64,000 bases of DNA from Pleurocapsa sp. PCC 7319 (GTDB lineage Bacteria; Cyanobacteriota; Cyanobacteriia; Cyanobacteriales; Xenococcaceae), in NCBI RefSeq assembly GCF_000332195.1, contig NZ_KB235922.1, positions 3,817,322 to 3,881,321 on the forward strand. The letters run 5' to 3'. Positions 17,202-30,513 of this stretch are shown piece by piece (the stretch's first letter is position 1; each line of letters begins with the position of its first letter). The position numbers and the translations under genes are program-made. The notes below the pieces were generated by a model that was not told the DNA's origin, made no database searches, and was given only the letters and a program-made list of their open reading frames with translations.

Positions 17202-18731
17202 ATGTTGGCAAGGGTTTGGAGCGCAGCAATCGCAGGTATTAATGCCATCAAGGTAGGTGTAGAAGTTGATGTTTCTGGTGGACTGCCCAAGATTGTCATT
17301 GTGGGATTACCGGATGTGGCAGTGCAAGAATCGAGAGAGAGAGTTAAAGCTGCTCTCAAAAATGCTGATTTTGCCTTTCCAGTACGTAAAATTGTGATTA
17401 ATCTCACTCCCGCAGATTTACGTAAAGAAGGACCATGCTTTGATTTGCCTATTAGTATGGGTATTTTAGCCGCATCAGAACAGGTAGATCCGCAGTTGTT
17501 AGGAGATTATTTGTTTTATGGTGAAGTTTCTTTAGATGGTACTTTAAGACCAGTATCTGGAGTACTGCCAATTGCTGCCGCTGCTACCAATATGGGAATT
17601 GCTGGATTAATTGTGCCTCGCGGCAATGCTCAGGAAGCAGCAGTTGTCAAAGATATTGCAGTATATGGATTTGACAATCTCAAGCAAGTAGCAAGCTTTC
17701 TCAATCAACCAGATAAGTATCAGCCCATCACAGTAGAACACCAACTTCCATCCAGCCTATCTCGACCGCCAATACCTAATCTCAAGGACGTTAAAGGTCA
17801 GGTTCACGCCAGACGAGCCTTAGAAATTGCCGCAGCGGGAGGACATAATCTAATATTTGTTGGTCCCCCTGGTAGTGGCAAAACAATGCTGGCTAAAAGA
17901 CTTCCAGGTATTTTACCAAGTCTTTCTTTCCCCGAAGCATTGGAAGTTTCCCAGATTCATTCTGTTGCTGGTTTGCTCAAAGATCGAGGACGATTAATTA
18001 CAGAAAGACCGTTTCGTAGCCCTCATCATTCGGCATCTGGTCCTTCTTTGGTGGGAGGTGGTAGCTATCCACGCCCTGGTGAAATCTCCTTAGCCCACAA
18101 AGGTCTGCTTTTTTTGGATGAGTTGACAGAGTTTAAACGCAATGTACTGGAATATTTGCGTCAACCTCTTGAAGACGGTCAGGTAACGATTTCCCGTACT
18201 CGACAATCGGTAGTTTTTCCGGCTCAGTTCACCTTGGTTGCTAGTACAAATCCCTGTCCCTGTGGTTATTTTGGCGATCCAATTCAAAACTGTACCTGTT
18301 CTCCTCGGCAAAGAGAAAATTACTGGGCAAAATTATCTGGACCGTTAATGGATCGGATTGATTTGCAGGTAGCGGTTAACCGTCTTAAACCAGAAGAAAT
18401 GACCAGACAAACTTTTGGAGAGGATTCTCAAGACGTGAGAGAAAGAGTGGTTACTGCCCGAAAGCTAGCAGAAAAGCGTTTTCAGGGGGAAACCGGAATT
18501 AGCTGCAACGCCGAAATGCGATCACCCCACCTGCGAGAATTTTGTATCTTAGATGATGACAGCCGCAATTTATTAGAAGGGGCAATACGCAAACTAGGTT
18601 TATCTGCTAGAGCGATGGATCGGGTGTTAAAAGTATCTCGGACTATTGCTGACTTAGCAGGCGATCGCCACTTACAAAGTCATCATTTAGCAGAAGCCAT
18701 TCAGTATCGCACCATAGATAGAATGCAATAG
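17202..18731 (+). CDS. YifB/ComM-type Mg-chelatase-like AAA+ ATPase
   Basis: 509 residues, full length. N-terminal Lon-protease-like fold ChlI domain (about 20-145; VDVSGGLPKIVIVGLPD), central AAA+ module with Walker A GPPGSGKTM and Walker B LLFLDE, and a C-terminal Mg_chelatase_C domain with a Cys-rich NPCPCGY segment. In transformable bacteria ComM is a hexameric helicase that extends branch migration of incoming single-stranded DNA. Here it would act in natural transformation or recombination. It starts at ATG with no neighbour in the same operon. Confidence 0.93.
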   Translation: MLARVWSAAIAGINAIKVGVEVDVSGGLPKIVIVGLPDVAVQESRERVKAALKNADFAFPVRKIVINLTPADLRKEGPCFDLPISMGILAASEQVDPQLLGDYLFYGEVSLDGTLRPVSGVLPIAAAATNMGIAGLIVPRGNAQEAAVVKDIAVYGFDNLKQVASFLNQPDKYQPITVEHQLPSSLSRPPIPNLKDVKGQVHARRALEIAAAGGHNLIFVGPPGSGKTMLAKRLPGILPSLSFPEALEVSQIHSVAGLLKDRGRLITERPFRSPHHSASGPSLVGGGSYPRPGEISLAHKGLLFLDELTEFKRNVLEYLRQPLEDGQVTISRTRQSVVFPAQFTLVASTNPCPCGYFGDPIQNCTCSPRQRENYWAKLSGPLMDRIDLQVAVNRLKPEEMTRQTFGEDSQDVRERVVTARKLAEKRFQGETGISCNAEMRSPHLREFCILDDDSRNLLEGAIRKLGLSARAMDRVLKVSRTIADLAGDRHLQSHHLAEAIQYRTIDRMQ

Positions 18732-18749
18732 CGGATATTTATATTTATA

Positions 18750-18770
18750 GGGGCGAACGGCGATTCGCCC
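18750..18770. terminator. Hairpin between convergent comM-like and kinase genes
   Basis: GGGCGAA (18751-18757) pairs with TTCGCCC (18764-18770) around a 6-base loop. It is followed on the plus strand by TTACAAAAATTTT. It sits between two gene ends and may terminate the plus-strand transcript. The same sequence type is common in cyanobacteria as a small interspersed palindrome, so function is uncertain. Confidence 0.45.
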
Positions 18771-18792
18771 TTACAAAAATTTTATCTTTCTA

Positions 18793-20322
18793 TTAGCCAG
18801 AACTTGCATCTGTTAATTTAGATTGTTTTACCTTGGATAAAATTTTGTCTTTGAGCTTTTCGAGTTCGGTTTTTAAAATTTCTTTGGCTAAAGTAACATC
18901 ACCGACACTTCTTGTTACCTGACTCAAATTAGCCCATTGCTCTAGCATCTTACGATTCTGAGCATTAATTACTGAACTAGCTACATGTTGGCAACGACTG
19001 GATTGATTAAGAGCATAAAATAAAATACGATATTTGCCCTGTTCTGAGAGCGATCGACTAATTTGTTGTCCTTTATTAGATTTAAGGTCAAGGTAACATG
19101 AAAGCCATTTAGGACCATGTTCGGCATTGTATAGCAGAGTAATCCAGAGCAACATTGGATGTGGATAATTTAAGTATAAAAACTGGTTATAGCAAATGCT
19201 CGCAATTCTATTGTGAATATCCTCTTGGTCTAACATGACACAAAGTACGGGAGCTTCTCCTAAAGGAGTAGAAATTAGTTGCGCAAATACAATTTTGCGC
19301 AAAGGCTTATTTTGAGGCCAGGTCGTTTGAAGACATATTTCTGTGATAGAAGATTCGGTATTTAAAGTTTTATCGACAGCTACTTGTGTCTGATCATCAT
19401 GGATCAATAAATTGCTAGGATTTGTGATGTGATCAATCGGTATTGACTCTAATGATTCTAATGACTCTAAAATATTTAAAATTTCTCTAACGCTTTGAGG
19501 TCTATCTTCTCTTGCTTTAGCTAGACAGCGCAATACTAAGGTTTGTAGTTTTTCTGGGATCTGAAGTTGATGGCTAAATGGCTCTGGTTTGAAGTTGTGA
19601 TGTGCCTGATACCATCCACCGAAAGAAGAGTTTTGAGGCAATAAAGGCATATCCATAGTGAGCATCTCATACATCATGACTCCCAAGCTGTAGATATCAG
19701 AACGATTATCTAATTCTTGTCCTTCCATTTGTTCGGGAGAACAATAAGCTAAAGTCCCCATAAAAGATTGGGTTTGGTTGGCACTGGCTTGGATTAACTT
19801 GGCGATGCCAAAGTCAAGTATTTTAGCAACTTCTCCCAGGGTAGGATCTTGAACTACTATTATATTACTAGGCTTGATATCGCGATGAATAATGCGACAG
19901 AGTTCTCCGTTTAGATCAATACCTTGATGAGCAGATTCTAAACCCAAACAAACGTGACGAATTAAGGTTAAAAACCTGTCCAAAGTTAAAGGATTAAAGC
20001 GAATTACTTCATTAAAGCTTGCTCCGGAAAGAAATTCCATCACATAAAAAGGTATATTATTTTTGTCTACACCATAGTCTTTGACCCTAACTACATGAAT
20101 ACTTTTTTCTCCCAATAGTGCCGAAATTGTTGCCTCGCGCTCGAAACGCTCGCGCATATTATCATTTAGCAGTGCTTGAGATAAAAATTTGACTGCTACG
20201 GTAACACCACCTAAGATAGTGTCCCTGGCACGATAAACTTTTCCCATAGCACCTTCGCCCACTAAATCAGATAGCTGGTAACGGTTAGCAAGTAATCGAC
20301 CGTGATTAAGATCTTTATTCAT
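18793..20322 (-). CDS. Ser/Thr protein kinase (Hanks type) with unknown C-terminal domain
   Basis: 509 residues from the ATG encoding MNKDLNHGRLLANRYQ. The kinase domain (about 15-290) is complete: glycine loop GEGAMGKVY, VAVKF lysine, HRDIKPSN catalytic loop, DFG as ILDFGIAK, and the SPEQ-type activation segment end. No transmembrane helix and no PASTA repeats. The C-terminal 200 residues are soluble and not recognised; they contain an LGEAPVLCVMLDQ stretch and end in a basic helix. The longer frame with 19 extra residues has no better ribosome site. The small gene upstream ends 64 bp away on the same strand, so the two are probably co-transcribed. A possible partner of the nearby FHA protein. 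Confidence 0.9.
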   Translation of the reverse strand: MNKDLNHGRLLANRYQLSDLVGEGAMGKVYRARDTILGGVTVAVKFLSQALLNDNMRERFEREATISALLGEKSIHVVRVKDYGVDKNNIPFYVMEFLSGASFNEVIRFNPLTLDRFLTLIRHVCLGLESAHQGIDLNGELCRIIHRDIKPSNIIVVQDPTLGEVAKILDFGIAKLIQASANQTQSFMGTLAYCSPEQMEGQELDNRSDIYSLGVMMYEMLTMDMPLLPQNSSFGGWYQAHHNFKPEPFSHQLQIPEKLQTLVLRCLAKAREDRPQSVREILNILESLESLESIPIDHITNPSNLLIHDDQTQVAVDKTLNTESSITEICLQTTWPQNKPLRKIVFAQLISTPLGEAPVLCVMLDQEDIHNRIASICYNQFLYLNYPHPMLLWITLLYNAEHGPKWLSCYLDLKSNKGQQISRSLSEQGKYRILFYALNQSSRCQHVASSVINAQNRKMLEQWANLSQVTRSVGDVTLAKEILKTELEKLKDKILSKVKQSKLTDASSG

Positions 20323-20386
20323 ACTTATACAATAAGAACTAATTTGAGAAAATTTAAAATCAGCTCTTTTGAATTCCAAGATACTA

Positions 20387-20824
20387 TTAACGTTTGAGAG
20401 TGGCTTCGATAGTACTTTTTAAACTATGACCTTCTAAAATACTGCTGGTGAAATGATATGTATTTTGATCTATGCAGTAATAAGAGTCTAGCCCTCTAGA
20501 GTTTTTGGCAGTACCCATAAACCAGTAATACTGAATAATTGATTGAAAACCGAGCCGCCCCTCTCCCTCAATATTCCCAAAAAGGCTGTGTTGTGAAACA
20601 TAGGTATAGTATTTTTCTTCGTAATTTAGGTTGCCTCGACATTCGTAAATAATTTGGGTCGCTGTTTGATCATCACAAGTCAAACTAGTAGTCAATTTAA
20701 ACCAGTTTTCTCGCTTCCAGCTAATTTGAATATTTCCCTGGAGCGGAACAAGTGCAGAATTGGATTTTAACCAATGACCATCAACATTCCAGTACCCCGA
20801 CTCTAATAAGAAACTATGAGCCAC
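20387..20824 (-). CDS. Unrecognised 145-residue protein upstream of the kinase
   Basis: No family recognised. The sequence is rich in Trp, Tyr and Ser/Thr with alternating hydrophobics, suggesting a small beta-barrel or lipocalin-like fold (ESGYWNVDGHW, YYWFMGTAKNSRG). No signal peptide or membrane segment. It reads as a two-strand-per-motif protein that might bind a small molecule. Same strand as the Ser/Thr kinase and 64 bp upstream of it, so it may be the kinase's sensor or substrate; this is inference from position only. Confidence 0.7.
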   Translation of the reverse strand: MAHSFLLESGYWNVDGHWLKSNSALVPLQGNIQISWKRENWFKLTTSLTCDDQTATQIIYECRGNLNYEEKYYTYVSQHSLFGNIEGEGRLGFQSIIQYYWFMGTAKNSRGLDSYYCIDQNTYHFTSSILEGHSLKSTIEATLKR

Positions 20825-20900
20825 AAGCCTATCCTCATAATTTGTATATGGTAATTAATATATTTATAATTCATATTTCATTGGCTCTGATCTATGTAAT

Positions 20901-22049
20901 CTACGGTACGTGAATATCTCCTAGTAGCATTGCTCTGGCTGCTCCTGTAACTTGAGGTAAGTTACCAGCAATAGAATTAACCCGCCAGTACGCCAATATA
21001 GCAAAAGCGATCGCCTCTTTGAAATTGCCATCAATTCCCGATCGATCGGTAGTAGTAATCTTTGCCGATGTTAACTTAGCTTGTAGGCGTTGTCTCAAAT
21101 ATAAATTTCTACTACCACCACCACACAGTAAAACTTCGTCGGGCATCTGGGGTAAAAACTGCTCATAGCTATGGGCAATCGAGGCTATTGTAAGTTCTGT
21201 AATGGTAGCAAGGCGATCGCTATCATTAAGCTGTGCTTGCTCCATATCTTGCCAACACTGATTTAGGTAATCTTGACCAAATAATTCTCGTCCCGTAGAT
21301 TTCGGTGGAGACTGCTGAAAAAAATCCTGCTGTAACCACTGAGCAACTAATTGCTGATTAGGAGTTCCCTGGGCTGCCCATTGACCATTATGATCATAAG
21401 TTTGCCTACCATCTGTTAAGCGAGCAACTGCTAAATCCAATAAGGCATTTCCTGGTCCTGTATCCCAGCCACGGATTTGTTGCTGCCAATTTAATTCTTG
21501 GTTTGGTGGTAAATATGCCACGTTACCAATACCACCAATATTTTGAATTGCCCTAGTTTTGGTAGGATGAGACAGTAAACAAGCGTCTACTTTTGGTACC
21601 ATAGGTGCACCTTCTCCGCCAGCAGCGATATCTGCTGCCCGAAAGTTACTGATAGTTTTGATTCCCGTAAGATGAGCAATTAATTCTCCTCTACCAATTT
21701 GTAAGCTATAGCCTAAATTCTTATCAGTTCCTTCTATTAAGGGTGGTCGATGATATACAGTTTGACCATGAGAACCAATTAATTTGGCTGGAGATTTCTG
21801 AGATTGGATCTTTTGGGCAGCCTGCGCAAAGTTTAAAGCGATCGCATCATCTAAACTAGCTAACTTATCGAGGGAAATGGGCTTGCCACTGCACACTGCC
21901 AGTATTTTTGCCCTTAGTTCTTCAGGATAAGCAAAAGTTTCTCCTGCCAGTAGCTCAACTTTAAGATCTGTTTCTTGACCACTAACTTCTATTAACACGG
22001 CATCAATACCATCAACAGAAGTTCCACTCATCAACCCGATAATTTTCAT
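20901..22049 (-). CDS. anmK: Anhydro-N-acetylmuramic acid kinase
   Basis: 382 residues, full length. It shows the family start [15 protein letters not shown], the [12 protein letters not shown] motif, the IGGIGNV phosphate loop and a C-terminal LLCGGGSRN segment. AnmK opens and phosphorylates 1,6-anhydro-MurNAc from peptidoglycan turnover to give MurNAc-6-phosphate. The lipoprotein gene 28 bp upstream on the same strand probably shares its transcript. Confidence 0.95.
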
Positions 22050-22077
22050 TTATAGTTTGATTATTAATTATTAGTTA

Positions 22078-23376
22078 TTACTTGCTTATTTTATTTTTCT
22101 TGATTATTAATATTAAATTGTTGTGGTCAATAGATAATTGGTTGCCAATGACAAAATCAAGAGATTTAATTTGTTTTTTAGAGTTATATGCTTTCCATAA
22201 TTCAGGTTGATATTGATTGCCAAATAACTCGGCTGGTTTACTATATTTTCCATAAAAATGAAAATTCCAGTTTTGAGGATTAAAATCACTTAATGGCACC
22301 CCAGAATCATCCTGTAATAAATATTTGCTTCGAGATAAGATTAATTCTTTAATGCTAGAGAAGCGATCAAAATGCATTAAATAAGCTGCTGATTTCAGAT
22401 AAGTAACTATATTATGCCGACTGTCAATAAATTTACTCAATTCTGGATTTTGAGCTAATTCTTGATTAGATAGATTGCTTGAAAAATAATATAAGTAATT
22501 TAATTCAGTGTTAACTGGAGTAAGAAAAGTTATTTTAACTCCTGTAAGCATTCCTGGTTGTTGAGGGATAATTATTCCTGCTTCGTTAAGACTAATATGC
22601 TCTATATTAACAATGCGATTATTGCTTCTGGCTATCAAGACACATAAAGCAGGTAGAGCTTCTATAGTTTGTAAATTGTGAATTTCCTCAGTACGTAAGG
22701 AATTATTCGATAGAATATGATAGAGATAAGTTCTTGCTTTTTGTAATTCTTGTCGAATTTGCTGCGGTTTAGCTTGGACAAAATCAACTAAATTTCCTAC
22801 AGGATATGAGTCAATTAATATATATTCTTTACTGTGAGGAAATAAAGTATAAGTGTGGAGAAAATCTGCACGACTAAAAGGGTATAAAACTGTGGTGCGA
22901 TCGCCAATGATTGGAGATAGCTCGGTTTGTTGCCAATAACGAATTTTCGCTAGATGTTGAGATTCTAGTTGTGACCAAGCATTGCTGAGAAAATCAATAT
23001 GCGAAGACCAGGCAGCTAAATTCTTTACCTGAGCTAACTGACTGTAGTTACTGATACGCATTCCTGCCAGTAGCTTTGCAGTATCAGTCAATAAGTCGGA
23101 TTTTTGCCGATCGTATTCTGACGGCTGGTTAAATAATTCTCGCTCCTCGATATTATTTGATTTCTGGTCTGTAGCGTTAGAAGGGATTTTTTGGGGTTCC
23201 TGAGAGAGATTGACAAGTTTGGCTAGCCGCTGAGGAGTCTTTACGGCAGAAGAGACGTTACAAGATTGCAGCAAAATCAAGCAAACAGAAGCCATGCCAA
23301 GTTTGAGAAATAGTCGATATTTTCTACCAATGCTTGCTATTCGTAGTCTACATAAATATGAGTGTAGCGATGACAT
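22078..23376 (-). CDS. Predicted lipoprotein of unknown function
   Basis: 432 residues. The N-terminal basic stretch and hydrophobic helix end in a lipobox, LLQSC, near residue 39, so the mature protein should be lipid-anchored at Cys. The rest is soluble, mixed alpha/beta, with a conspicuous segment YPFSRADFLHTYTLFP and ILIDSYPVG. I do not recognise a named family with certainty. It ends 28 bp before anmK on the same strand and may serve cell-wall turnover in the envelope; that is inference from location. Stretches of the 3' flank consist of ATTATTA heptamers. Confidence 0.75.
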   Translation of the reverse strand: MSSLHSYLCRLRIASIGRKYRLFLKLGMASVCLILLQSCNVSSAVKTPQRLAKLVNLSQEPQKIPSNATDQKSNNIEERELFNQPSEYDRQKSDLLTDTAKLLAGMRISNYSQLAQVKNLAAWSSHIDFLSNAWSQLESQHLAKIRYWQQTELSPIIGDRTTVLYPFSRADFLHTYTLFPHSKEYILIDSYPVGNLVDFVQAKPQQIRQELQKARTYLYHILSNNSLRTEEIHNLQTIEALPALCVLIARSNNRIVNIEHISLNEAGIIIPQQPGMLTGVKITFLTPVNTELNYLYYFSSNLSNQELAQNPELSKFIDSRHNIVTYLKSAAYLMHFDRFSSIKELILSRSKYLLQDDSGVPLSDFNPQNWNFHFYGKYSKPAELFGNQYQPELWKAYNSKKQIKSLDFVIGNQLSIDHNNLILIIKKNKISK

Positions 23377-23630
23377 AGGACGAATAACTTGATTTGTTAG
23401 TGACTAACCGTTGTAGCCTACAAACCAATCAAACCGCAAGGTTTAATTATCATCTGTCATAACTATTACCAAAAGCTCACAAGTTCTTCAAAATTTTCGC
23501 CTAATCTAAAACTAGAAAAGAAAACAACAATTATTAATTAATAAATATTTCGAGAATAAATGGTGCATCTAGAGTTAGATTTAAATAGTTATTAGATTAA
23601 AATAGTCGCTAAATAAAGAGGTAAAAAAAC

Positions 23631-23771
23631 ATGAAAATCTTTACATGGATACAAGACACATTTCAATATCTTGTTAACGGAGTTGCAAGACTTTTTGAAC
23701 CTACTGACGATGACTATCCCAATACAGGAGTTCAACCTTTTAGTGGCGATCCTAGTAATGATCAAGAATAA
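23631..23771 (+). CDS. 46-residue small protein with amphipathic N-terminal helix
   Basis: Too short for most gene finders. A good ribosome site (AAAGAGG about 8 bases before ATG) and a strong terminator 58 bp downstream mark it as a real single-gene transcript. The N-terminal half is an amphipathic helix (FTWIQDTFQYLVNGVARLF). The C-terminal half is acidic and proline/glycine-rich (DDDYPNTGVQPFSGD). The size and pattern recall small conserved cyanobacterial proteins such as the F-type ATP synthase regulator AtpTheta (AtpT, about 48 residues). I cannot confirm that match without alignment, so no symbol is given. Confidence 0.75.
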   Translation: MKIFTWIQDTFQYLVNGVARLFEPTDDDYPNTGVQPFSGDPSNDQE

Positions 23772-23828
23772 TACTTTTAGTACTATGATGATGTGATAAG
23801 AAAAATAAAGATTGATTTTCCAATGACC

Positions 23829-23867
23829 AGCTAGTAGAATTAAAAATTTTCTACTAGCTTTTTATTT
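23829..23867 (+). terminator. Intrinsic terminator of the 46-residue gene
   Basis: Perfect 11-bp stem AGCTAGTAGAA / TTCTACTAGCT with a 9-base A/T loop, followed by TTTTATTT. It ends the small-gene transcript before the pseudogene zone. Confidence 0.85.
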
Positions 23868-23898
23868 GCTTAGTTATTAGTTATCAGTGCTTATTGAT

Positions 23899-24051
23899 AT
23901 GGCAGTGAGCCAAGGCAAAGAAATCTCTATTCGTGGGAGTGTAGTTAATGTTTTATCTCGTAAACGAGTAAAAGAGGGGCTATATTCCGCAATCGATCCC
24001 CTACAATCAGATTCTAAAATGCTAACTTCTCAAATAGTTAGCGATCGCTAA
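23899..24051 (+). pseudogene. Collapsed remnant of N-type (alternative) F1Fo ATP synthase beta subunit
   Basis: A 50-codon frame joins two distant parts of the alternative ATP synthase beta subunit. Residues 1-18 (GKEISIRGSVVNV) match the family's extreme N-terminus. Residues 18-50 (LSRKRVKEGLYSAIDPL, then SKMLTSQIV) match a segment about 350 residues further on, after the catalytic core. P-loop, Walker B and the rest are gone, so it cannot work as an ATPase. The joint falls in a VNVL/IVLSRKR-like stretch, suggesting deletion by short homology. A TAA lies directly in HIP1. Family assignment rests on recalled motif order. Confidence 0.65.
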
Positions 24052-24072
24052 AATAACTCAAATAATTTTGGC

Positions 24073-24560
24073 ATGAACTTAAAAAAGGGAATCAAACTAA
24101 TTGAGGAAACAGAAGGAACTGGAAATCGTGTTCAACGCCATCGATATTATATACTCGCAATTCGCTTGACCCTGAATAAAGGTGATGTGGTAAAAGTTCC
24201 GCATCAATGCTTATCTTATTCAATTGATCCACATTTATAGCCGTACAAAATTACGTTAGGACAAGTTTATTTGATTGCTCGTAAGTAATGAGTAACGAGT
24301 AACGAGTAATGAGTGTCATAATAAAAGTTCGTATTGCTATAAAGGTTAATGATGATGGCTTTTTAAAACATCGGACACGGATAGATCGGGAATATTTAGT
24401 TCCAGGAATTTTTTATGCAGTTCAAGGGATGAAAGTAAAGGGCTATCGAAAAATAATTATTAGCCCCCATTTAGGTTATGGAGAAAAGGGAATTCTTGGC
24501 GTTATCCCTAAAAATGCCAAATTAATAGCTGAGATCAAAGTTTTACAGGAAGCAGATTGA
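24073..24560 (+). pseudogene. FKBP-type peptidyl-prolyl isomerase split by a MITE
   Basis: The first 55 codons (MNLKKGIKLIEE ... LNKGDVVKVP) and the downstream part (VPGIFYAVQGMKVKGYRK, then SPHLGYGEKG ... IPKNAKLIAEI) are the two halves of one FKBP domain. The MITE at 24236-24341 separates them. Removing the element and one TA restores an unbroken frame, PHL-KVNDDGF. With the element present, the first half stops at a TAG inside the terminal repeat. The second half could only start from an ATG contributed by the element (24309), giving 83 residues without the N-terminal strands. Probably inactive. Confidence 0.82.
24236..24341. mobile_element. MITE family A, copy 3, with TA target duplication
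   Basis: 106 bp, same ends as copies 1 and 2: TATAGCCGTAC...GTTAGGACA and TGTCATAATA...GTATTGCTATA. The core is four heptamers (GAGTAAC/GAGTAAT). The TA at 24236-24237 and 24340-24341 is the target duplication, proved by the FKBP frame that is restored when the element is removed. This copy defines the true ends of the family as TAGC...GCTA. Confidence 0.85.
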
Positions 24561-24781
24561 CATTAATAACCCCAATACTAAAGCTTCTGAGAGCTTTAGC
24601 GTCTTTATTTCTGCCGACTCTCCTGGAACAATATTGAGTGGATTTGCGCTGTAAAGTGATGAGTGTGATTAATTAATACTCAATAAATTTCCGTGTATTC
24701 ACTTATATTAAGCTCTCATACTAAATGCTAACATACTTTTATTTATGACCAATAGCGTCAAATTTATAACTATTACTTGGC

Positions 24782-25507
24782 ATGGAAAAATTACAAGAAT
24801 TATTGAAAAATCCTCCTTTGATACATGAAGAAGCTCCAGGTAAACTGACTTCATGGCAGTTATCTGATGAAGTCCTTTATTTTATTAATAATAATATTAA
24901 TGAAGATTCCATAACTTTAGAAACAGGTACTGGAATTAGCACAATACTTTTTGCTATAAAATCTTCTCATCATACTTGCATTTGTCCTAGTGAAAAACAG
25001 GTTGACAGAATCAAGAGTTACTGTCAAAGACATCAAATAAATACTGATAAAATAGATTTTAAAATAGATTTTTCGGAAAAGGTTTTGCCATCTTTAAATA
25101 TTAACAAAATGGATTTAGTTTTAATTGATGGTTCTCATGCATTTCCTATACCGTTTATTGATTGGTACTATACATATCAAAAGTTAAAAGTAGGAGGAAA
25201 AATCATCATCGATGATACTCAGCTATGGACTGGTTTAGTTTTAAAACAGTTTTTGAATTTAGAACCAGAATGGAAATTAAACAAAAATTCTCCGCCCAGA
25301 TCGGCAATTTTTACTAAAATTCAAAAGTATGCCCAAGCAAAATGGTATGCTCAACAACCTTACATTGTCAAAAATAGCTATTTTTTGATTTTCAAGGCTA
25401 AAGTCCAAAACTTTTTACGACTTTTGTATGTCGGAGACTTTCATAAGTTGGGTAAACTCATCGGCAATCAACTCAACCAACTTAAAATAAGGCAAAATAA
25501 GATTTAG
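24782..25507 (+). CDS. Class I SAM-dependent methyltransferase (Methyltransf_24-like)
   Basis: 241 residues. Motif I appears as LETGTGISTI (about residue 47), followed by DLVLIDGSHAF and LKVGGKIIIDDTQLW, the pattern of the Methyltransf_24 group. This group includes small-molecule and sugar-modifying enzymes. The C-terminal 60 residues are basic and helical. The substrate cannot be told. The gene stands alone; 221 bp upstream hold a small AAAGCT/AGCTTT hairpin that may end the FKBP transcript. Confidence 0.8.
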   Translation: MEKLQELLKNPPLIHEEAPGKLTSWQLSDEVLYFINNNINEDSITLETGTGISTILFAIKSSHHTCICPSEKQVDRIKSYCQRHQINTDKIDFKIDFSEKVLPSLNINKMDLVLIDGSHAFPIPFIDWYYTYQKLKVGGKIIIDDTQLWTGLVLKQFLNLEPEWKLNKNSPPRSAIFTKIQKYAQAKWYAQQPYIVKNSYFLIFKAKVQNFLRLLYVGDFHKLGKLIGNQLNQLKIRQNKI

Positions 25508-25839
25508 TTAGCTCACTAACTAATCTTATTAATTGTAAATGTCTCATATAGAAATTAAACAATTAAACTTTCTTAGATCGCTCCTCTCGATTAATTGGCG
25601 CTCAGCTCTGCTGGTTCGCGATGCGGAGCGCGAAAAGCGAAGCGAGGCGGGGGGTCCACCCGTTGAGACTATTGAGCAAGAAGCTAGTATATGCAGCTTA
25701 AGCCTTTGTTTAGGGCGGAGGGCAATCGCCTAGCGATATTCAAAACGTTTTTTATAGTTCAAATGCCACTTTGGCACAATTTTTGAGACATTTACGTAAT
25801 TATCCACATGGAGATGCTCAATAGACCAGAGTCTTACAG
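25508..25839. repeat. Gene-free stretch with a GC-rich interspersed repeat
   Basis: Roughly 25590-25730 is GC-rich and palindromic (GGAGCGCGAAAAGCG, GAAGCGAGGCGG). It ends in a 38-base block (25693-25730) that recurs with two differences at 53976-54013. A 64-codon frame across it is only a product of the repeat. After it, 25735-25824 reads as an open piece of about 28 codons ending in TAG (FLRHLRNYPHGDAQ), which looks like the tail of a decayed gene that I cannot name. Confidence 0.6.
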
Positions 25840-28800
25840 TCACTTCCCTAATGTAATCCCTAATTCTATTTTATCGTCTGTAAAATAAGCTCCAAATTCT
25901 ACTAACAGTTTATTCATAGGATATGTTTCAATATCGCTAGGATCTTGTCCATCTCTAACGCATTCGTTTAATTTGACAAACTTTTTTCTCAAATCATCGC
26001 TGTGACTAAATTTTTGCCACGACCATCCTGTGCCAATAGCGATAATTTTCCCTCCCTCTGAAACAAATTTTTTAATAGCATTAATTTCAGCATCTTTTAG
26101 ATTCCCCCAGGCATTTGCAATTATCAAAATTCGACCTTTTTTGAGTTGATTAAGATTAATATCTTGAGAAATTTCTTCTATTTCATAATTCCATTTATTA
26201 AGTTGCTCTTCTGAAATTTTTTTGTTGTCCCAGCCTCCATTTTTGGTTACATGTTCACAATGTCCATTTGAAATTAAGATTTTGATTTTCTTGTCATCAT
26301 TCTTGTCATCATTAATTCCACTAAGAAGGTTGAGTACTATTAACAAAAATCCTTTTTGTACGTTTTTTTTCTGGGTTAAAATGCCCTCATGTCCAATTGC
26401 CAATACTTTTCCTCGTTTATATTTGCGAAGCATAGCATATGCTTTTTTCTCTTCTTCCTCTTTTTCCAAGAGAGCCTTCCAATCATTATTAGGTGATTTT
26501 TTTTCGATCCTTCCAGGAATATCCTGTCTCTCTTCAGTATCAGTAAAATTCAGCACATCTTCAGGAGGAAATGCTCGTAATACTTTGATTAGACCAAATT
26601 GGAATTGATCGAATGCTGATAAGATTTGTATGATGGTATAAGCCAAGATAGTAAGTAAGATTGCTCCTAGCGTAATTGAGCTAGTTGAACGAAGCCTATT
26701 ATTGCGCTTTCTTTGAAGACTACGCTGCACAAACTCAGCTTCTATCTGGTTAAACCAGTATTTACTAGTTTCAAGTTTTTCTTTTAATACATTAAGATAA
26801 GGATTGCCATGCCATAGATAATCCACAGGTTTGTTCCCAGAAGGCTGTTCTCCATCTTCTAAATTTTTCCATTCTTTTGCTATGGGTGTTAGCCGCCGTA
26901 GTAAGAGTAAACTTTCTTCCTCCTGCTGTTTCCATACCAACAGCTTTGACCATCCTCGAACCAAAGCATCATGAGCTGGTTCTACATAGGAGTTTCCCTC
27001 AGTATCTTGCCCTTCTACCAGTAAACGTGCAGCAGAGAAGTGCAAAATCATCTTTTTAACCCGTCCGTTTTCTGGTTCAGGATATTCTAGTTCCGATAAA
27101 AGTACTCGGCGACGAGCTATTTCTCCTCCACCTACAGCAATCATGCGTAACAATACATTACGAATAGTTTGAGCTTGGGCTGAATCTTGTTGGACTAACT
27201 TTTCATATTCGTTGTTGGCTCTTTGAGTCAGACTGTATGCTACTCCTCCTATCTCTTGATAGTCTTCTTGAGTAATTACCCGCTTATCTCTAATTCCTGC
27301 ACGGAATTTCTGCAAATACTTAATATACAGCTCGCTTAAAGCAAAAGAAAGTAAAGGTAAAGCTCCTGGCATCTGAACTACTTCATCAATTAATTGCTCC
27401 ACCAATGAGTAAGGTTCAAAATACATCACCCGTGCTGCTGCTGGTTTTTCAATTGCTTCTCTTAATTCCTCTCTGGTCATGGTTGGCACTACAAATCTAG
27501 CTTTTTGCCAATACGACTTTAAAATCAGAGTTCTAAATTGGGGTTCAAAGTCACTGCGAAGAGTGAAGAGAATATGCAACTGTTGAGGATATTTTTTTAA
27601 CCATTCAGCCAACAGAAGGAAAAATTCATCTTGCTCTCTCCTATTTCGACATAGAGTAACTAGTTCTTCTGTTTGGTCAATTACCAATAACAACTTAGTT
27701 CGAACGTCCGCAGCCAGTATATAATCAATTTTGCCTGTCAAAACCTCTTTTTTTTCCCTGCTAGTCAGACTAAGAATTGAGGAGCCAGATGAATTGTGTT
27801 CTGACAATATTTTATTTAACGCTTTGAAGGCAGATTCTCCAGGACGCATAGGAGACAAAACTTGCCATCGGTTTTCTGTTGTTTTTAACTGCTGGATATA
27901 AGTAATTAATCCCGCCTTGACCAAGCTCGATTTACCTGTTCCCGAAGCCCCTAAAACTACTGTTAATGGTCGCTGTTGGCAAAACTGGTATAACTTTTCT
28001 GTTAGAGCTTGTCTACCAAAGAATAGATTGTGGTGTTCCTGGTCAAAAGATTCTAAACCACGATAAGGATTTTGGCTTTCATCGAGGGGCGGTGCATCAG
28101 GTAAGTTCAGTTCATGTCCAGGAGTATGAAAAATGTATTCTCCATGATCGTGTTTATTGAAGGGAAATAAACCAGGGGTTTGTTTTGTTCCATTTTCTTC
28201 GGTGGCTAGTTCTACACGATCGCGCAAATATAAGTATAGTTCCGTGGCAGTTATGACTCCATCCCCTGCAGGTTTTCCATTTTTTGCTGGAGGATTAGAA
28301 TCCGCATCACCCTGCAAAGCCTCAATTAAAGCTGCCGCAAAAGGAGAATGATGACTGTCGGTTTCTCCACGATCATCTTTTAAAGCTAGGTTATCATATG
28401 CTGTTTGATTGTGAGCTGCAGAAGTAATTACTTGCCATGCAGAAGCTTCAATAAAGCGATCGTAATGTTGTCGGTGAATGACCTCGGGGATAACCAATAA
28501 CTTTCTAGTGCTAGACCAACGAAATGCCCCGGCAAAACAGCAATCAAGGATTCCTAGAAAATGACGACAGGGCAATTTATCCAAAGCCTTTTGCAGTTGC
28601 ACCATTGGTAAATAACTACTGGTGTCCCCCATTCGAGCATCTTGAGGAATCAAAAACCCTTCAGGTCCATCATCACCGTTAAGAGCAATACCGTGTCCCG
28701 CAAAATAGAAAATCAGGCGATCGCTTTCTAGAATTTTGTTTGGTAAAGATTCTTCTATCAAACGTATAAATTTGGCTAACGTTGCTTTTTCGTCTAATAA

Positions 28801-28953
28801 TCCCCAAATTTTGTAACCATGGTAGTTATGCAGAATCTGAGAGATTTTTTTAGCATCGTTAACAGCTGTTCTGAGAGTTGGAATACCATGTTGATAGTTA
28901 TCGATACCAATAATTATGGCTACGCTACGTTTAAATTTAGGAGACATAATCAA
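25840..28953 (-). CDS. Caspase-like protease / STAND NTPase / TM / amidotransferase-fold fusion
   Basis: 1037 residues. Residues 8-270 form a caspase (peptidase C14, metacaspase-like) domain with the His in FYFAGHG (H87) and Cys in LDCCFAG (C138/139). Residues 295-700 form an nSTAND-type NTPase: entry motif NPYRGLESF, Walker A GASGTGKSS (335-343), Walker B LLLVIDQTEE (421-430), and helical winged region. A transmembrane helix spans about 757-778. The C-terminal 190 residues (KVLAIGHEGIL, then GRILIIANAWG, GGKIIAIGTGWSW) look like the Rossmann-type amidotransferase-fold domain found beside M60-like proteases. No WD40 or TPR sensor. Probably a membrane-tethered stress or conflict executor. No partner gene on the same strand. 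Confidence 0.88.
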   Translation of the reverse strand: MIMSPKFKRSVAIIIGIDNYQHGIPTLRTAVNDAKKISQILHNYHGYKIWGLLDEKATLAKFIRLIEESLPNKILESDRLIFYFAGHGIALNGDDGPEGFLIPQDARMGDTSSYLPMVQLQKALDKLPCRHFLGILDCCFAGAFRWSSTRKLLVIPEVIHRQHYDRFIEASAWQVITSAAHNQTAYDNLALKDDRGETDSHHSPFAAALIEALQGDADSNPPAKNGKPAGDGVITATELYLYLRDRVELATEENGTKQTPGLFPFNKHDHGEYIFHTPGHELNLPDAPPLDESQNPYRGLESFDQEHHNLFFGRQALTEKLYQFCQQRPLTVVLGASGTGKSSLVKAGLITYIQQLKTTENRWQVLSPMRPGESAFKALNKILSEHNSSGSSILSLTSREKKEVLTGKIDYILAADVRTKLLLVIDQTEELVTLCRNRREQDEFFLLLAEWLKKYPQQLHILFTLRSDFEPQFRTLILKSYWQKARFVVPTMTREELREAIEKPAAARVMYFEPYSLVEQLIDEVVQMPGALPLLSFALSELYIKYLQKFRAGIRDKRVITQEDYQEIGGVAYSLTQRANNEYEKLVQQDSAQAQTIRNVLLRMIAVGGGEIARRRVLLSELEYPEPENGRVKKMILHFSAARLLVEGQDTEGNSYVEPAHDALVRGWSKLLVWKQQEEESLLLLRRLTPIAKEWKNLEDGEQPSGNKPVDYLWHGNPYLNVLKEKLETSKYWFNQIEAEFVQRSLQRKRNNRLRSTSSITLGAILLTILAYTIIQILSAFDQFQFGLIKVLRAFPPEDVLNFTDTEERQDIPGRIEKKSPNNDWKALLEKEEEEKKAYAMLRKYKRGKVLAIGHEGILTQKKNVQKGFLLIVLNLLSGINDDKNDDKKIKILISNGHCEHVTKNGGWDNKKISEEQLNKWNYEIEEISQDINLNQLKKGRILIIANAWGNLKDAEINAIKKFVSEGGKIIAIGTGWSWQKFSHSDDLRKKFVKLNECVRDGQDPSDIETYPMNKLLVEFGAYFTDDKIELGITLGK

Positions 28954-29565
28954 ATTTTGCTGCTGGGAGTAAAAAAAAGTTTAATTATAGGAAAGCAGAC
29001 AACTAGTGTTGAATGAATTGAATAGCGCGCGAAGCTCAATTAAATTCCCACTGATTGAAGATATTTGATTTCTTTGTAAAGAGGTAAAGAGTTGCTAGTC
29101 AGTGATGAAAAAGGTGACTATACACTGGTCTTCAGGTAATTACTAGCCAATTCACAAGTAGCAGATAACAAGTAGCAAGTAGCAAGTTTTACCTCTTCCT
29201 AGAGTAAGAGGCTTTATACCGACTTCGGAGTCATATTTGCTATTTGCTATTTGCTACTTTAGCTTCGAAGGAGCTTGGTAAAATCCGCAGTTAGTTAAAC
29301 TGGGATTACTGAAATTATGAATTTTAGGTTAATGATGAAACCCTATTGCGTGGGGAGTGGTTTTAAATAAGAAAGAAGATTTAAGAGTACGATCTGGACT
29401 CAAAGAAGCTTTTACAGTTAATAACATAGCCAAAGTAACCTCTTATTATGAGATGTTTATTGTAATATTTTATTAACATATATAATCAGTAGCTTAAAGA
29501 GACTACAAAACTTTATAGAAGGTGAAAACCCACAAGCGAAGCGTCAGTTCTCTCGTGAGTTTTCT
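28954..29565. other. Gene-free 0.6 kb, repeats only
   Basis: No supported gene. It holds the promoter side of the caspase gene, a GC-rich GCGCGCGAAGC patch near 29025, and the inverted heptamer repeat at 29156-29259. Next to the flippase gene it has a hairpin (GAAAACCCAC/GTGAGTTTTC, about 29522-29565) that could end the flippase transcript. Short in-frame pieces such as SDEKGDYTLVF near 29100 hint at a decayed gene but cannot be identified. Confidence 0.5.
29156..29259. repeat. Inverted heptamer repeat
   Basis: The left arm is built of AAGTAGC-type 7-base units. The right arm carries the same units in reverse complement (TTGCTAT, GCTACTT). Between them are two smaller hairpins (CCTAGAGTAAGAGG, ACTTCGGAGT). 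The whole would fold into one long hairpin. Related in style to the heptamer cores of the MITEs. Confidence 0.7.
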
Positions 29566-30513
29566 CTAATCATTTATTTTTTTAGCTGCACTAAGCATTT
29601 GTCCCAAAAAAGGTAAGCCAATTAAAGCAGGAATAAAATAGCGAGAAGTACACAATAAACCCAAAGCTGCTCCTGTTGCATCACTCAAGTAATTTTGATA
29701 AAAATAGATGATCGCTGCATCGCGAGTGCCTATTCCAGCAAAGGTTAGAGGGAGCAATCCTGCCAATATTGATAGGGGAGAGAGGGCTAAACTAATAATA
29801 AAGGGAGTGAAAGCTTTTAAAGCCAAGATAAACAGCCAAATTTGCAGTAGATGCAAGAACCAAATAAATACTGAAGTGCTGCTAATTAGTAATAATTGCG
29901 GTTTATTACTCCAAAAATAGCTATACATCTCTCGCCAGGAGACTTGCATTTTCTGTAGCTTAATTTTTAATGACTTAGGGGCAAAACTAATAGCTAAATT
30001 AAAAAATAAATCGGCAAATTGTTGAGAGCTTAATAATAACAAGCCTAAAGCCAATCCCGTTGCTACTCCTAAGGTCATTGTCCAAAATAGAGGATCTTTG
30101 GCAGGATATAAAATCAAGCCAAAAACGCACCACAGCAACAAAGAAAGTAAATCACAAGCTTTTTCAAAAATAGAAATTGCTAAAGCCAGTCCCCCGCTCA
30201 AATTGGAGCGTTCACACATAAAATATGCTTTGGCAATATCACCCATCTTGGACGGTAACACCATATTGAGAACACTCGCTCCCAAAATTAGACGGTTAGC
30301 TTCTAGAAATCCTAAACTTTGCTGTGGTACTAACTGTTGTAGTCGCCAAGCGGTAATCAGGGTAATCGGAATAACCATCCCTAAGCTGATGGCTAACATT
30401 AAGCGATCGCAATTTTGAAAAACTTGGAGGAGATTGACAACATCAATCTGAGCATAGATATACAGTAAAATAGCAACGCTAATTACCAAGGAAACAAACC
30501 GTTTGAGATTCAT
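29566..30513 (-). CDS. Flippase-like membrane protein (LPG synthase TM / UPF0104 family)
   Basis: 315 residues with about 8 membrane helices. The family signature is present: the helix around SKMGDIAKAYFM, FEKACDLLSLLL, and FAGIGTRDAAIIYFY near residue 265. The family includes the MprF transmembrane domain and AglD, implicated in lipid or glycolipid flipping. No catalytic aminoacyl-transferase domain is attached. It is divergent from the membrane-protein gene at 30595, with about 80 bp between them. Confidence 0.88.
   Translation of the reverse strand: MNLKRFVSLVISVAILLYIYAQIDVVNLLQVFQNCDRLMLAISLGMVIPITLITAWRLQQLVPQQSLGFLEANRLILGASVLNMVLPSKMGDIAKAYFMCERSNLSGGLALAISIFEKACDLLSLLLWCVFGLILYPAKDPLFWTMTLGVATGLALGLLLLSSQQFADLFFNLAISFAPKSLKIKLQKMQVSWREMYSYFWSNKPQLLLISSTSVFIWFLHLLQIWLFILALKAFTPFIISLALSPLSILAGLLPLTFAGIGTRDAAIIYFYQNYLSDATGAALGLLCTSRYFIPALIGLPFLGQMLSAAKKIND

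What the first reader, a model, noticed from the sequence alone, without database searches (positions are those of the whole stretch)
25840..28953. Caspase-like/STAND NTPase/TM protein ending in an amidotransferase-fold domain
Seen: one 1037-residue chain with a caspase-type His/Cys dyad (FYFAGHG, LDCCFAG), a full Walker A/B NTPase of nSTAND type, one transmembrane helix, then about 190 residues with two GGK/GRILIIA-type Rossmann strands. Known: cyanobacterial caspase-STAND proteins usually end in WD40, TPR or sulfatase-like sensors. Here the usual sensor is replaced by a membrane anchor plus a domain resembling the amidotransferase-like module next to M60 proteases. Inference: a membrane-tethered suicide or immunity switch in which the C-terminal domain senses ligand, cell-wall or sugar state. 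It lies among decayed genes and repeats, typical for defence genes.
Basis: partly seen in the sequence, partly recalled or inferred. Interest (0 to 1): 0.75.

Follow-up and report, generated by a model that had tools for sequence, protein, structure and literature searches.

The report
Membrane caspase-NTPase with swapped sensor tail
A cyanobacterial gene encodes a probable membrane-anchored death switch, a caspase-like protease plus a molecular-switch ATPase, whose membrane segment and sensing tail look like a swappable cartridge that some other cyanobacteria attach to a different killing domain.

Summary
The minus-strand ORF at 25840-28953 is intact: Peptidase_C14 (9-262), nSTAND1 NTPase (296-699), one hydrophobic helix (760-778) and a 190-residue tail. 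The tail looks like a diverged GIFT domain (IFT52/GldG/DUF4350 relatives, amidotransferase-like fold), supported by sub-threshold profile matches and a medium-quality model.

The helix does not replace the usual sensor: WD40-tailed relatives have one in the same place. What changes is a cassette of helix plus tail.

Three results give this weight. (1) Two Moorena-type cores share 92.7% identical DNA up to codon 741; past that point one has WD40 and the other the GIFT-like tail. (2) The core tree needs at least three tail changes among 29 proteins. (3) The same tail sits behind TIR domains in two other cyanobacteria. All seven distinct strong tails found are fused to a caspase-nSTAND1 or TIR module.

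Best reading: a one-protein transmembrane receptor. An extracytoplasmic GIFT-like sensor would drive NTPase assembly and caspase activation, leading to cell death or dormancy. Ligand, topology and defence role are inferred, not shown. Caspase-NTPase-TM-WD40 proteins are already described, so this is a new variant of a known kind.

The parts
25840..28953 (-). whole ORF, 1037 codons from TTG; likelier start ATG at 28947 (1035 aa)
   Evidence: start aligned with homologues
28168..28929 (-). caspase-like Peptidase_C14 domain, residues 9-262 (H87, C139)
   Evidence: E 7.8e-17; dyad in 29 of 30 rows, the miss being a contig end
26857..28068 (-). nSTAND1 NTPase, residues 296-699 (Walker A K341, Walker B D426)
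   Evidence: E 2.9e-99; K341 and D426 in 30 of 30 rows
26620..26676 (-). predicted membrane helix, residues 760-778, preceded by an Arg/Lys-rich stretch
   Evidence: mean hydropathy 2.23; N-side net charge +5
25870..26442 (-). GIFT-like tail, residues about 838-1028; invariant in 6 aligned tails: H855, G897 H898 C899 E900, N947-G950, G967 G968, C998, Q1003, T1010-N1014

Best explanation
A single-protein, membrane-anchored, NLR-like death switch. Shown here: a conserved caspase-like domain and nSTAND1 NTPase, then a hydrophobic helix with a positively charged N-side, then a diverged GIFT-like domain; the helix-plus-tail unit has been exchanged with WD40 tails on closely similar cores, and the same tail is fused to TIR domains elsewhere. 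Inferred: by the positive-inside rule the caspase and NTPase are cytoplasmic and the tail is in the periplasm or thylakoid lumen. The tail's invariant residues (GHCE motif, NAWG, C998-GQ, TYPMN) would form a pocket for a small envelope ligand, most plausibly a sugar, glycan or cell-wall fragment released by phage attack or envelope damage. Ligand or damage would change the tail, the signal would cross the helix, the NTPase would exchange nucleotide and cluster, and the clustered caspases would cleave themselves and other targets, stopping growth or killing the cell. In the TIR versions the same sensor would cluster TIR domains directly, to consume NAD.
For: Domains and catalytic residues. GIFT relationship: 5 of 5 tail rows match IFT52_GIFT, DUF4350 and ABC_transp_aux in Pfam at E up to 1 (best E 6.9e-7, 1.6e-6, 4.1e-5); the tail profile finds the sequence of a solved IFT52 at E 7.8e-5; Foldseek lists mouse IFT52 with probability 1.00 though only E 6.9e-3 and TM-score 0.35-0.37. 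Cassette exchange: L049 (GIFT-like tail) and L014 (WD40 tail) are 92.7% identical in DNA over 2288 bp, ending at L049 codon 741, which is window residue 744, 16 residues before the helix; three more GIFT/WD40 comparisons end at the same codon (L049-L012, L048-L012, L048-L014); L007/L014 protein identity falls from 88% (705-729) to 60%, 28% and 5% in the next three blocks; the core tree of 29 rows needs three tail changes, one change in 0% of 200 bootstrap trees. Tail-effector link: the 7 distinct proteins with a strong tail match all carry caspase-nSTAND1 (5) or TIR (2). Topology: N-side net charge +3 to +6 in 28 of 28 rows with the segment, C-side -1 to +3. GIFT domains are proposed in print to bind sugars (passages of PMC7226087). 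An extracellular WD40 behind a TM in orthocaspases has been proposed (passages of PMC7475262).
Against: The window's own Pfam scores for the tail are below the curated cut-off (IFT52_GIFT 20.7 bits for the whole protein, 24.2 for the tail, against 27.2). Scanned as whole proteins at E 0.01, IFT52_GIFT appears in 3 of 5 relatives (L047, L050, L053), not in L048 or L049. The tail model has mean pLDDT 63 and pTM 0.70, no PDB fold match reaches E 0.001 and the top-ranked one is an unrelated ATPase. The full-length model is unusable (pLDDT 39.9). The shuffle test on the tree shows no significant clustering of the tail (67 of 500 as low), and three changes may be one gain and two losses. The helix region varies strongly even between the two Pleurocapsa-type GIFT-tailed proteins (32% at 755-779). 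No experiment, topology test, ligand or phage link exists. WD40 propellers on the far side of a membrane would be unusual, so the helix may not cross. No operon partner was found.
Confidence: 0.55

Rival explanations
1. Same receptor logic, but the trigger is abiotic envelope or redox stress in programmed cell death, not phage infection.
For: Orthocaspase literature frames these proteins as stress or extrinsic cell-death receptors (passages of PMC7475262). The two invariant cysteines C899 and C998 could be redox-active. The tail was not found in phage or plasmid records or viral contigs, so it does not ride on those elements as far as these searches reach.
Against: Sharp exchange of tails on a closely similar core resembles conflict-driven diversification. 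TIR fusions are typical of defence proteins (recalled).
Confidence: 0.25
2. The tail is a second effector or an enzyme (amidotransferase- or ThuA-like) released by caspase self-cleavage, and the helix or another element is the sensor.
For: In the caspase proteins of EACC1 systems the domains C-terminal to the caspase are read as effectors freed by autoproteolysis (section 33 of PMC7159879). The tail has a set of invariant polar residues including a cysteine (H898-C899-E900). ThuA matches 2 of 5 tails weakly.
Against: Here an NTPase lies between caspase and tail, the tail sits beyond a hydrophobic helix, the position is otherwise held by WD40 repeats, and the same tail is fused to TIR, itself an effector. 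The tail's closest named families (GldG-type, IFT52) are not known to me as enzymes (recalled).
Confidence: 0.12
3. The hydrophobic helix lies in or on the membrane without crossing, so the tail stays cytoplasmic and reads an internal ligand.
For: WD40 tails at the same position are easier to understand in the cytoplasm; topology rests only on hydropathy and charge bias. IFT52, the closest solved relative by profile, is cytoplasmic (recalled).
Against: Positive bias on the N-side in 28 of 28 rows. A published survey infers extracellular WD40 for such proteins (passages). GldG-type proteins, weakly similar to the tail, carry membrane helices of their own by eye (side of the domain recalled).
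Confidence: 0.2

Closest known systems
Cyanobacterial caspase - AAA_16/NACHT (STAND) - TM - WD40 orthocaspases (for example Ava_0039, GEI7407_1667 as named in passages of PMC7475262)
   Same: N-terminal caspase domain, STAND-type NTPase, one membrane helix, C-terminal recognition module
   Different: The tail is a GIFT-like domain, not WD40; the cassette exchange and its breakpoint are not in the passages I read
EACC1-associated caspase proteins (System 4, Kaur et al. 2020, PMC7159879, section 33)
   Same: A constant caspase with varied C-terminal domains, some with TM plus an extracellular periplasmic-binding-protein domain
   Different: Scores 68.3 bits against a cut-off of 140 for the EACC1-type caspase model
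GIFT domains (IFT52, GldG, OST48/Wbp1; PF23355, PF09822, PF14258)
   Same: Core strand-helix unit; a GHxE motif in a GldG-type cyanobacterial protein (QGHGE) aligns with GHCE in the tail (hhalign probability 58%)
   Different: Extra N-terminal part with RKYxxGKVLAIGH, C-terminal C..GQ..TYPMN region, and fusion to death effectors
Antiviral STAND/Avs proteins
   Same: N-terminal effector, central STAND NTPase, C-terminal sensor (layout as in passages of PMC10907252)
   Different: Membrane helix and GIFT-like tail; no defence test
TIR-TM-ectodomain receptors (Toll-like layout; resemblance recalled)
   Same: L050 and L053 place TIR domains, one hydrophobic helix and the same tail in one chain
   Different: No leucine-rich repeats; unrelated sensor fold; order along the chain is reversed (recalled)

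Membership tests
Orthocaspase / Peptidase_C14 | p20 fold with His/Cys dyad | tested here: met
   H87 and C139 in 29 of 30 rows, the miss lacking that region
nSTAND1 NTPase | profile match with Walker A and B | tested here: met
   (333.7 bits, cut-off 27.1)
STAND antiviral protein | effector - NTPase - variable C-terminal domain order | tested here: met
   that the tail senses is inferred
STAND antiviral protein | protects against phage | not testable with these tools
   needs phage challenge
GIFT domain | profile match of the window protein above the curated cut-off | tested here: not met
   20.7 bits (whole protein) or 24.2 bits (tail) against 27.2
GIFT domain | fold and remote profile similarity | tested here: inconclusive
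   5 of 5 tails match at E up to 1; IFT52 found by profile and by Foldseek with prob 1.00 but E 6.9e-3. I call the tail GIFT-like, not a member
EACC1-caspase system | EACC1-type caspase model over cut-off | tested here: not met
   68.3 against 140 bits
EACC1-caspase system | EACC1 gene alongside | not tested
   neighbouring ORFs were listed but not scanned for EACC1
M60-associated amidotransferase-like module | direct similarity to that module | not tested
   no such protein was fetched; Peptidase_M60 in 0 of 60 genomes of the order
Single-span membrane receptor | helix crosses the membrane, tail outside | not testable with these tools
   hydropathy and charge bias only

The most novel reading that the evidence does not exclude
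Cyanobacteria have a family of one-chain transmembrane death receptors with interchangeable ectodomain cassettes. A GIFT-type, probably glycan-reading ectodomain is plugged onto either a caspase-NTPase or TIR effectors, giving bacteria a Toll-like or inflammasome-like receptor that watches the cell envelope from outside the cytoplasm.
Probability: 0.3. Interest if true: 0.75.

Novelty: new variant of a known kind. Interest (0 to 1): 0.5.

Why it matters
The characterised bacterial NLR-like proteins that I know of sense phage parts inside the cytoplasm (recalled). If the tail is outside, this is a bacterial receptor that couples an envelope signal directly to a caspase or a TIR enzyme. The sharp exchange of helix-plus-tail cassettes on a conserved core gives a natural set of swaps for finding which ligand each tail reads.

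Tried and rejected
Full-length AlphaFold2 model: mean pLDDT 39.9, discarded. VIA-align search: library not available, so only Foldseek was used. BFVD matches: two with E below 0.001, one a virion structural protein of Ralstonia phage RP12; not followed because TM-scores were at most 0.48 and PHROGs gave only two families, each from one of 6 members. The tail was not found in plasmid records, phage records or viral contigs. A Planctomycetales match (L051, 28% over 83 residues) was judged too weak and was not counted. Weak tail matches: 5 genomes and 17. Of these I scanned three ORFs (L042, L043, L044), and 3 of 3 hit ABC_transp_aux, the GldG-type family; the G239 ORFs that I printed (L040, L046) look unrelated by eye; the rest were not scanned. 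The repeat-rich setting was tested and not seen. A conserved gene neighbour was sought and not found: of 16 window ORFs compared, none but the gene itself matched in L047, L048 or L049. M60 peptidase: none in 60 genomes. The genome-contig scan used only two short peptide patterns and did not return the genome of L053, so the count of tails is a lower bound. EACC1-type caspase was rejected on score.
Full report
WHAT IS THERE. The ORF is real and intact on the minus strand at 25840-28953. It starts TTG-ATT-ATG; the ATG at 28947 is the likelier start because homologues begin there. Pfam gives Peptidase_C14 at 9-262 (E 7.8e-17) and nSTAND1 at 296-699 (E 2.9e-99). The window lies in a 7.39 Mb genome of 10 contigs. 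Same-genus genome G268 holds the same protein as a record named Pleurocapsa sp. MO_192.B19 (L006 and L047). The window's organism is therefore probably a Pleurocapsa-type cyanobacterium (inference).

THE CORE IS COMMON. In 291 genomes of the order, 37 have a match to the protein at E 1e-100 or better. I aligned the 29 loci returned besides the window's own, plus the window protein. The caspase dyad is kept in 29 of 30 rows; the miss is a contig end. The P-loop lysine and Walker B aspartate are kept in 30 of 30. Of the 30 rows, 4 have the tail seen here, 23 show two or more WD40-type motifs, 1 (L022) showed none by my motif but ends in a WD40-like sequence by eye, and 2 (L025, L034) are cut before the tail. 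In the window's own genome there are 4 Peptidase_C14 matches and 4 strong nSTAND1 matches among 10.

THE HELIX IS NOT THE NEW PART. The window's helix is residues 760-778. All 28 rows long enough have a hydrophobic segment at about the same place (mean hydropathy 1.58-2.63), preceded by a net charge of +3 to +6. By the positive-inside rule the tail would be outside the cytoplasm. The same inference for WD40 tails has been published (PMC7475262, passages).

THE TAIL IS GIFT-LIKE. Residues about 838-1028 match IFT52_GIFT, DUF4350 and ABC_transp_aux in 5 of 5 tails at E up to 1 (best E 6.9e-7, 1.6e-6, 4.1e-5). The window's own scores are below the curated cut-offs. In whole-protein scans at E 0.01 IFT52_GIFT shows in 3 of 5 relatives, and ABC_transp_aux in 5 of 5. 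A profile of five tails finds IFT52 among solved structures at E 7.8e-5. The model of the tail (5-sequence alignment) has pLDDT 63, pTM 0.70 and alternating strands and helices. Foldseek lists mouse IFT52 fifth, with probability 1.00 but E 6.9e-3 and TM-scores of 0.35-0.37; no PDB match reaches E 0.001, and the top-ranked match is an unrelated ATPase. Three weakly similar cyanobacterial ORFs are GldG-type by Pfam (3 of 3 scanned), and one aligned to the tail profile shares a GHxE motif with it (hhalign probability 58%). GIFT domains are proposed to bind sugars (PMC7226087, passages). Six aligned tails share 35 invariant residues, including H855, G897-H898-C899-E900, N947-A948-W949-G950, C998, Q1003 and T1010-Y-P-M-N1014, which suggests a binding pocket (inference).

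THE TAIL TRAVELS. Strong tail matches: 5 of 291 genomes of the order at E 1.5e-37 or better, with five more weak ones; 2 of 386 genomes of the phylum strong (own, and G551 at 1.2e-61) and 17 weak; in 30 genomes of the family of G551 only G551 itself. In genome contigs a scan with two peptide patterns gave 59 stretches, of which 5 were relatives: 4 strong and 1 weak. Merging duplicates, seven distinct proteins carry the tail: the window protein, L047/L006, L048, L008, L049/L007 (caspase-nSTAND1) and L050/L039 and L053/L071 (TIR). L008 was not scanned with Pfam but aligns with the window protein over residues 6-1028. L050 has three TIR_2 stretches and L053 one. Each of the two has a hydrophobic stretch between TIR and tail by eye.

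THE SWAP HAS A SHARP EDGE. In the tree of the core (29 of 30 rows; L025 was dropped by a length rule), the four GIFT-tailed proteins do not group: starred branches force three changes and 0% of 200 bootstrap trees show one. Three changes may be one gain and two losses; L034, whose tail is not seen, counts as unlabelled; and the shuffle test, 67 of 500 as low, shows no significant clustering of the label. In the subtree with L007 and L008, GIFT and WD40 tails interleave. L049 (GIFT-like) and L014 (WD40) share 92.7% identical DNA over 2288 bp, from 63 bases before the start codon to codon 741, plus an 89-base piece further upstream, and no coding match beyond. L049-L012, L048-L012 and L048-L014 end at the same codon, which is window residue 744, 16 residues before the helix. 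L007/L014 protein identity is 80-100% in each 25-residue block up to 729, then 60%, 28% and 5% up to 804. In 735-800 the window protein is closer to the two Moorena-type GIFT proteins (43-44%) than to its nearest WD40 relatives L009 and L010 (28-30%), though its caspase domain is closer to the latter (74-75% against 63-64%) and its NTPase is about equally far from both (57-60%). I read this as helix and tail moving together. The helix region is variable even between the two Pleurocapsa-type proteins (32% at 755-779). The tail also varies more than the core: 67% against 81-84% between the two Pleurocapsa-type proteins, 69% against 83-86% between L007 and L008.

SETTING. The flank from 29566 onward is conserved in the genus: the 29566-30513 protein is found in 12 of 13 genomes, own included. 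In 2 of the 9 fetched regions the far flank is also held: in L078 (G162) the genes matching 17202-18731 and 29566-30513 lie about 2.8 kb apart, and in L082 (G019) about 3.3 kb, against 10.8 kb in the window. The caspase gene therefore sits in a variable stretch. It was not found in any of the 9 fetched regions, and in L047 the homologue has other neighbours. No partner gene is shared among the loci compared.

HOW IT PROBABLY WORKS. Shown: domains, conserved residues, helix position, tail exchange, TIR fusions. Inferred: the tail faces outward, binds an envelope ligand, the NTPase clusters, the caspase is activated and the cell stops growing or dies. Confidence 0.55 for the receptor-switch reading as a whole; the trigger (phage or stress) is open.

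NOVELTY. Caspase-STAND-TM-WD40 proteins are in print (passages), and C-terminal domain variety behind caspases is in print (section 33 of PMC7159879). A survey of 473 cyanobacterial orthocaspases lists 35 accessory domains, none of them GIFT (passages with Table 1 of PMC8283722); 'GIFT' is also absent from the main texts searched. Literature searches showed no GIFT-caspase or GIFT-TIR fusion in their listings (titles and starts of abstracts); most subscription papers are not held. I rate it a new variant of a known kind.

Noticed in passing
window 18731-29566: Variable stretch between conserved flanks: about 10.8 kb here, about 2.8 kb in L078 and 3.3 kb in L082. It holds a Ser/Thr kinase gene (18793-20379, Pfam), an anmK-like ORF (20901-22049, by eye) and a methyltransferase-like ORF (24782-25507, Pfam).
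   Followed up: partly
L048:97-3270 and L049:64-3159: In both Moorena records the gene just upstream encodes a similar long protein. The L048 one matches the alpha/beta-hydrolase-like DUF7379 and the end of a caspase domain; the L049 one was not scanned. A caspase-hydrolase pairing is noted in passages of PMC7159879.
   Followed up: no
L050:3865-6597: A 910-residue protein with three TIR_2 stretches, a hydrophobic helix and the same tail, in a Prochloraceae cyanobacterium record.
   Followed up: partly
   Followed up: partly
BFVD A0A248SJG3_1 and A0A1L7N0W2: Two viral predicted structures, one a virion structural protein of Ralstonia phage RP12, match the tail model at E 5.5e-5 and 1.5e-4; possibly the same fold in large-phage particles.
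   Followed up: no
window 24309-24560: Short ORF of 83 residues resembling the end of an FKBP-type isomerase (by eye, recalled); possibly a fragment.
   Followed up: no
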